From assembly GCA_900498135.1 (NCBI GenBank), contig LR026961.1:62001-126000 (forward strand): a stretch of 64,000 nt of DNA, written 5' to 3'. Every line of letters starts with the position of its first letter. The stretch's first letter is position 1. Shown here one piece after another: positions 23,582 to 23,835 of the stretch. This DNA is from an uncultured Desulfatiglans sp. Its GTDB lineage: Bacteria; Desulfobacterota; DSM-4660; Desulfatiglandales; Desulfatiglandaceae. A program made the translations under genes and the position numbers. The notes below the pieces were generated by a model. That model was not told the DNA's origin. It saw only the letters and a program-made list of their open reading frames with translations, and did not search any database.

Positions 23582-23835
23582 CTTCGCCGGCTGCGTCTGT
23601 TCAGCGCCACCCCGTCGGGATGGTTCCCGGTGTCTTCACCGGATCCGTCTCGCTCAGTGTCGGCCCTTCGAGGCGGGTCCCGGTTTCTTCACAGGCTAGC
23701 CGTGCTCAGTCCCAGCGCGAAGCGTTGGAAGCCGGAATCACCGTCTGCAACCGCGGCTCCAGGCCGGAAATGATGGGTTTCCTTGACACGCTGCGCGTGC
23801 TCAGCCCCACGCCTGCCAGGTGTGGGTCCCGGTTT
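23582..23835 (+). repeat. Tandem ~52-base degenerate hairpin repeats (about five units)
   Basis: Units at 23582-23633, 23634-23686, 23687-23738, a shorter degenerate one at 23739-23780, and 23781-23835. Shared blocks are CTTC at the 5' side, a GCTCAG core, a short GC stem, then GGTCCCGGTTT. The stems differ in sequence but still pair (for example CCCACGCCT with AGGTGTGGG in the last unit). Related units occur at 48232-48333. The region has no credible gene. Confidence 0.65.

What the first reader, a model, noticed from the sequence alone, without database searches (positions are those of the whole stretch)
23582..23835. Tandem ~52-base repeats with compensatory stems, in two intergenic places
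About five units here and two at 48232-48333 share GCTCAG and GGTCCCGGTTT around a small stem whose sequence changes but still pairs (CCCACGCCT/AGGTGTGGG here; CCCACCGC/GCGGCGGG at 48.2 kb). Both blocks lie in intergenic regions. This is the pattern of a dispersed structured repeat family, possibly REP-like or a multi-copy RNA.
Basis: seen in the sequence. Interest (0 to 1): 0.65.

Follow-up and report, generated by a model that had tools for sequence, protein, structure and literature searches.

The report
BOX-like mobile repeat with swappable module
The repeats are the middle module of a small non-coding jumping element with over 240 copies in this sulfate-reducer-lineage genome, built like the 'BOX' elements of Streptococcus, and the same module occurs on its own and inside an unrelated element in related bacteria.

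Summary
The ~52-nt unit ("B") has 131 copies in the 4.8-Mb genome (0 for the reversed pattern). It is the middle of a modular element A-(B)n-C, n = 0, 1, 2 or 3. A and C carry 17-bp terminal inverted repeats (GTTTCCATCCGGAAATG / CATTTCCGGATGGAAAC). The C core has 249 copies. A-C without B folds into one long hairpin (z = -9). Flanks carry short TA-rich target duplications (27 of 107 with 6 or more identical bases; 1.7 expected). A congeneric genome has precise empty sites, and orthologous copies differ by whole units (2 vs 1, 3 vs 1). This is a BOX-type composite MITE.

In other genera B stands alone, sits at other points of the A-C MITE in either orientation, or lies 1-3x inside an unrelated MITE. 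B is therefore a separately dispersed hairpin module. Its two stems covary across genera.

REP/RAYT was tested: no B at the ends of about 65 Y1-transposase loci and no GTAG/CGTC tag, so B is REP-like but not a shown REP. No Rfam family matches. The transposases that moved A-C and B were not found, and no host function is shown.

The parts
23535..23581 (+). decayed A module (two copies of the terminal repeat) of element 1
   Evidence: sequence: CCGGAATGATGATTACTCGGAACGATCCGGGTTTCCATACT...; position before B as in intact copies; orthologous copy in G001
23582..23633 (+). B unit 1 (52 nt)
   Evidence: blastn to B, 76%
23634..23686 (+). B unit 2 (53 nt)
   Evidence: blastn to B; exact pattern hit 23652-23684
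23687..23738 (+). B unit 3, 3' half decayed
   Evidence: blastn to B over first 28 nt, 82%
23755..23781 (+). decayed A2 module of element 2 (GGCTCCAGGCCGGAAATGATGGGTTTC)
   Evidence: sequence; short A2 match
23782..23835 (+). B unit 4 (54 nt, longer second stem CCCACGCCT/AGGTGTGGG)
   Evidence: blastn to B 87% over 54 nt; exact pattern hit
23836..23861 (+). remnant of the C module (GGCCGATTCCGGCATCGATCCGGATA)
   Evidence: sequence only; by position and the ends GGCC..CCGGAT
48146..48231 (+). A module of the second element, tandemly duplicated
   Evidence: TRF period 35 at 48146-48221; A2 match 81% at 48205-48231
48232..48282 (+). B unit
   Evidence: 92% to B, exact pattern hit
48283..48329 (+). 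second, decayed B unit
   Evidence: 70% to B; same in orthologous G001 locus
7367..7417 (+). A1-A2 fragment of the same family
   Evidence: 90% and 95% matches
43953..44024 (+). decayed C fragment
   Evidence: 72% over 72 nt

Best explanation
The repeats are the B modules of a BOX-type composite MITE, A-(B)n-C. SHOWN: A1-A2-C (~176 bp) is a near-palindromic element with 17-bp terminal inverted repeats. It is inserted at >240 places, with short TA-rich target duplications and precise empty sites in a sister species. In every sampled copy that has them, B units sit in one place (GGATTTTT|B|GGCCAAT) and one orientation. They occur in 0-3 copies that differ by whole units between orthologous loci. 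In other genera B is found alone, at other MITE positions, or in an unrelated MITE. INFERRED: the A-C element is moved in trans by an unidentified transposase that duplicates ~6-7 bp. B, a two-hairpin module that lands 3' of TT, entered this MITE in an ancestor of the genus and then rode along. Unit number then changes by slippage or unequal recombination between head-to-tail units (or by a further B landing after the GTTT end of the first). The copies are mostly selfish. If transcribed, the hairpins may influence neighbouring mRNAs, as reported for other bacterial MITEs; this is untested here.
For: Counts: C 249, A2 236, B 131 copies, reversed controls 0. Module order A1-A2-B-C in sampled loci: n=0 72 elements, n=1 49, n=2 13, n=3 1; 109 of 110 B units adjoin A or C modules. 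Fold of A1-A2-C: -50.8 vs -23.2 kcal/mol for shuffles, z -9.0; with B, z -7.6. TSD: 27/107 copies with >=6 identical flanking bases vs 1.7 in shuffled pairs, pattern nA..TA. Empty sites in G001 at eight loci; at 1173312 the site CCTTAGGAG became CTAAGGA-element-CTAAGGA. Unit-number change: 1862778 2 vs 1 B (a 52-nt gap), 3217701 3 vs 1 (104 nt). Relatives: A-C in 37/99 genomes, 28/61 genera; B in 17/61 genomes, 14/40 genera, alone or at other sites of the MITE, and 1-3x in an unrelated carrier in G066 with ends ACCTGAATCTTGCA/TGCAAAATTCAGGT. Covariation across genera: 7 of 12 pairs with double changes, 95.8% of cells paired, score 0.270 vs 0.099 shuffled and <=0.032 slid.
Against: No autonomous partner with these ends was found in the ~0.4 Mb of own sequence read, so trans-mobilisation of A-C is inferred. 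TSD length varies and is absent at some clean copies (e.g. 501438, 2361211). The tree of A2+C copies is star-like: it needs 31 changes of B state, and neither shows nor excludes one origin of B. Covariation inside this genome is nearly confined to one pair per stem.
Confidence: 0.86

Rival explanations
1. B is a REP element: a palindrome moved by a RAYT/TnpA-REP (Y1 HUH) transposase, the window blocks being BIMEs.
For: B is short, intergenic, hairpin-forming, in >100 copies; it lands 3' of TT with no clear duplication and has two subterminal hairpins, as IS200/IS605 ends do; sometimes both orientations near each other in G018.
Against: None of about 65 Y1_Tnp loci, including those examined in the own genome and those in B-rich G066, G093, G018, G009, has B at its ends (a partial sister unit ~200 bp beyond one IS200 in L166 is not its end). 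The own IS200 has other ends. No GTAG or CGTC tag at the hairpin foot. In this genome arrays are head-to-tail in one orientation, not alternating as in BIMEs.
Confidence: 0.15
2. B units are a functional structured RNA or attenuator kept by selection, and the A-C context is secondary.
Against: Presence/absence and copy number differ between congeners. Many decayed copies. Covariation also follows from selection on DNA hairpins for mobility or from repair of quasi-palindromes. No Rfam match. Copies with no B are the least diverged (median C identity 98.2% vs 95.6% with one B, loci not sampled at random).
Confidence: 0.1
3. The tandem units are ordinary minisatellite expansion inside a MITE, B having no separate mobility; B in relatives is shared ancestry of one composite element.
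For: Within genus g1 B is always in one place; BrickBuilt of Porphyromonas is such a case (PMC4596501). Unit changes are whole 52-nt steps.
Against: In relatives B lies at two or more other points of the A-C MITE, in both orientations, alone, and in an unrelated MITE.
Confidence: 0.12

Closest known systems
BOX elements of Streptococcus pneumoniae / S. suis (boxA-(boxB)n-boxC)
   Same: A-(B)n-C plan with n from 0 upward, tandem B units varying between relatives, terminal inverted repeats, B folding on its own so that its number can change; in S. suis two carrier families enclose the same boxB (PMC3049150)
   Different: Different phylum; no shared sequence claimed (pneumococcal BOX sequence was not compared here). 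B is also found outside any carrier and at other points of the same MITE
BrickBuilt MITE of Porphyromonas gingivalis (minisatellite within a MITE)
   Same: leader, 0-6 tandem units, tail, terminal inverted repeats, intergenic, unit number differs between strains (PMC4596501)
   Different: 23-nt units, 19 copies, no matches outside the species; here 52-nt two-hairpin units shared among many genera
REP / REPIN / BIME with RAYT
   Same: short intergenic hairpin repeat, >100 copies
   Different: no GTAG/CGTC tag, head-to-tail arrays, no linked Y1 transposase found
IS200/IS605-derived non-autonomous elements
   Same: two hairpins, insertion 3' of a short T-rich target, no clear target duplication
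   Different: no parent element with these ends found; resemblance only

Membership tests
MITE (generic) | short, non-coding, terminal inverted repeats | tested here: met
   17-bp TIR, ~176 bp without B, hairpin z -9.0
MITE (generic) | target-site duplication / empty sites | tested here: met
   27/107 vs 1.7 expected; precise empty sites in G001
MITE (generic) | parent transposon with the same TIR | tested here: inconclusive
   none seen in the ~0.4 Mb of own sequence read; no targeted whole-genome search for it was made
BOX-type composite repeat | A-(B)n-C module order with variable n | tested here: met
   n = 0-3, order constant in sampled loci
BOX-type composite repeat | B number varies between relatives at one locus | tested here: met
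   2 vs 1 and 3 vs 1 at orthologous loci
BOX (streptococcal family) | sequence homology with pneumococcal boxA/B/C | not tested
   no BOX sequence was compared; not claimed
REP | GTAG or CGTC tag at one end of the palindrome | tested here: not met
   B units read through; tags as defined in PMC3733652
REP | linked RAYT (Y1_Tnp) flanked by the repeat | tested here: not met
   about 65 loci, none
Rfam RNA family | match to a covariance model | tested here: not met
IS200/IS605-like mobility of B | insertion 3' of a fixed short target, no TSD | tested here: inconclusive
   TT precedes B in most of the distinct sites; exceptions L146, L152; B's own TTT end leaves a TT(T) duplication possible

The most novel reading that the evidence does not exclude
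B is an independent minimal mobile element of ~52-57 nt (two hairpins, landing 3' of TT). It repeatedly invades MITEs of different origin, is amplified with them and forms tandem arrays inside them. This would be a general route by which 'boxB'-type modules arise, with B moved by an unrecognised single-strand (HUH-type) or other transposase.
Probability: 0.4. Interest if true: 0.65.

Novelty: new variant of a known kind. Interest (0 to 1): 0.5.

Why it matters
BOX-type composite repeats are known from streptococci; where their swappable middle module comes from is not explained in the papers read. Here the module can be caught outside its carrier, at several points of the same carrier, and inside an unrelated carrier, in one bacterial order. 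That makes 'is boxB a separate mobile element?' testable by comparison. The copies also mark insertion and unit-number polymorphism in a little-studied sulfate-reducer-lineage group and can break assemblies.

Tried and rejected
RAYT/REP: Y1_Tnp loci in the own genome and relatives searched for B ends by blastn, R1 and R2; none. Own IS200 as mobiliser of B: three copies aligned, ends differ. Autonomous parent between a lone A1 (1112683) and the next element: only ordinary ORFs. Exact B pattern in GTDB contigs: no match, own genome left out there. Tree to show one origin of B: star-like, undecided. Open-frame test of intergenic bias is weak because long chance frames are common here. Literature: no paper held describes this element.

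Full report
THE OBSERVATION. Both blocks are present. The pattern GCTCAG...GTCCCGGT has three matches in the window against 0.02 expected. The first block contains four recognisable units belonging to two decayed elements; the second contains one full and one decayed unit. The quoted stems pair, with one G-U and one A.C mismatch.

GENOME-WIDE. The genome is one contig of 4,801,105 bp; the window is 62001-126000 of it. The exact pattern has 73 hits (one, at 3731687, is probably chance), the reversed pattern none. With up to 3 mismatches B has 131 copies, the A2 27-mer 236 and the C 35-mer 249, all with zero reversed controls.

ANATOMY. Reading 60 loci, then 109 merged stretches of about 0.4 Mb, gives: A1 GTTTCCATCCGGAAATGATTTCGCGGTAGAACTCA; A2 GTTTCCAATCCGGAAATGAGGATTTTT; B CTTTACACCCTTCGGGTGCTCAGTCCCACCGCTTCGCGGCGGGTCCCGGTTT (52 nt, two hairpins); C GGCCAATATCAAGG...GACCATTTCCGGATGGAAAC (114 nt). 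Modules abut exactly in clean copies. Elements with A2 and C: n = 0 in 72, n = 1 in 49, n = 2 in 13; one further element (A1-B-B-B-C) has n = 3. Of 110 B units, 109 adjoin a module of the element; the exception is the unit at window 23782, preceded by a decayed A2. A2+C alone is a 142-bp imperfect palindrome that matches its own complement at about 75%. A1-A2-C folds at -50.8 kcal/mol against -23.2 for shuffles (z -9.0). With one B the outer stem is kept and B adds two side hairpins.

MOBILITY. 27 of 107 complete copies have at least 6 identical bases at both ends against 1.7 in shuffled pairs; the exact 6-mers read nA..TA. In the congeneric genome G001, 26 orthologous regions were read. Some loci carry the element in both. 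Eight show an empty or differently occupied site, and at 1173312 the empty site and the 7-bp duplication CTAAGGA are clear. Unit number differs by whole units: 2 vs 1 at 1862778 and 3 vs 1 at 3217701. The window blocks themselves are orthologous and decayed in both genomes, so they are old; in G001 a further A1-A2-B-C copy lies just downstream of the 48.2-kb block.

RELATIVES. A-C sequences occur in 37 of 99 genomes searched (the own one included), 28 of 61 genera, 96-99% identical in the genus and mostly 75-83% beyond, with TA-rich duplications visible there too. B occurs in 17 of 61 genomes, 14 of 40 genera, and in 9 of 297 genomes drawn across the phylum. In relatives it stands alone (L147, L148, L150, L153), lies within A2 after CCAATT (L145, L149, L160), or within C near CCTTGATT(T) (L144, L151, L156), in either orientation relative to the carrier. 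In G066 it lies 1-3 times in an unrelated carrier with ends ACCTGAATCTTGCA / TGCAAAATTCAGGT. In most distinct sites the two bases before B are TT. At the sites inside the MITE the T-rich target can be compared with B-free copies; elsewhere B's own ends leave the register uncertain by 1-3 bases.

COVARIATION. Inside this genome paired cells are 93.8% and double changes are concentrated at one pair of each stem, two haplotypes each. Across genera 7 of 12 pairs have double changes; the covariation score is 0.270 against 0.099 shuffled and at most 0.032 when slid. The alignment was fitted to the structure, so this leans towards it. Covariation does not separate RNA from DNA hairpins.

WHAT IT IS. 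The plan A-(B)n-C, with variable B, is that of streptococcal BOX elements. There too B folds apart from A and C, and in S. suis two carriers share one boxB (PMC3049150). BrickBuilt of P. gingivalis is a second analogue (PMC4596501). No homology to either is claimed.

REP/RAYT. REPs carry a GTAG or CGTC tag and GTAG REPs are often linked to RAYTs (PMC3733652). B has no such tag. About 65 Y1-transposase loci, including those in B-rich genomes, have no B at their ends. So 'REP' is not supported as membership; 'REP-like hairpin repeat' is fair as description.

MECHANISM. Shown: insertion polymorphism, target duplication, module order, unit-number change, separate occurrence of B. Inferred: trans-mobilisation by an unseen transposase, one ancestral entry of B in this genus (constant position and orientation; the tree is undecided), and slippage or unequal recombination for n. 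Copies without B are the closest to consensus (median C identity 98.2%, against 95.6% for n = 1 and 90.4% for n = 2), which suggests that the B-less form moved most recently; the loci were not sampled at random. No host function is shown.

HOST. Closest named relatives of a window protein (PF09924 family) are Desulfobacteraceae/Desulfobacterales MAGs at 60-61%; the genome itself is not named by the tools.

Noticed in passing
G000:C1:1-9811 and 4791295-4801105: The contig's two ends overlap by 9,811 bp (9,798 identical): a circular chromosome left untrimmed, so copies there are counted twice.
   Followed up: yes
L192, L193, L194 (G000:C1:4251903, 4559060, 3688539): IS200-type element with 154-aa Y1 transposase in at least three near-identical copies, ends CCCCCGGCTTTGCCGGGG ... 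CCTCCGGCTTTGCCGGAGG.
   Followed up: partly
L232, L234-L245 (genome G066): A second, unrelated multi-copy MITE-like carrier with TIR ACCTGAATCTTGCA/TGCAAAATTCAGGT and 1-3 B units inside.
   Followed up: partly
L247-L250 (genome G018): A sister unit of B, GTCCTCGC...GGACTCCCCATCC-TTC-GGATGGGTCCCCGGTTT, interspersed with B.
   Followed up: no
L365, L373 (genome G238): B-like GATTCTTCACTTCGCTCAGACCCCACACTTCGTGTGGGTCCCC next to GAAGCAATCT / GCTTCGCTCGCAATGAC, a motif type that recurs in other bacteria (from memory); possible wider superfamily.
   Followed up: no
window 40806-40869: A separate 32-bp tandem repeat, two copies (TCAATGTCATTGACATAACCTATAAGCTTGCA), found by TRF.
   Followed up: no
C module hits starting at query position 13, e.g. 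G000:C1:191104, 3491425, 4475267: Several elements end ...GGATGGAAATCAAGCG..., i.e. a second C copy recombined at GGAAATCAAG: internal tandem duplication of C.
   Followed up: partly
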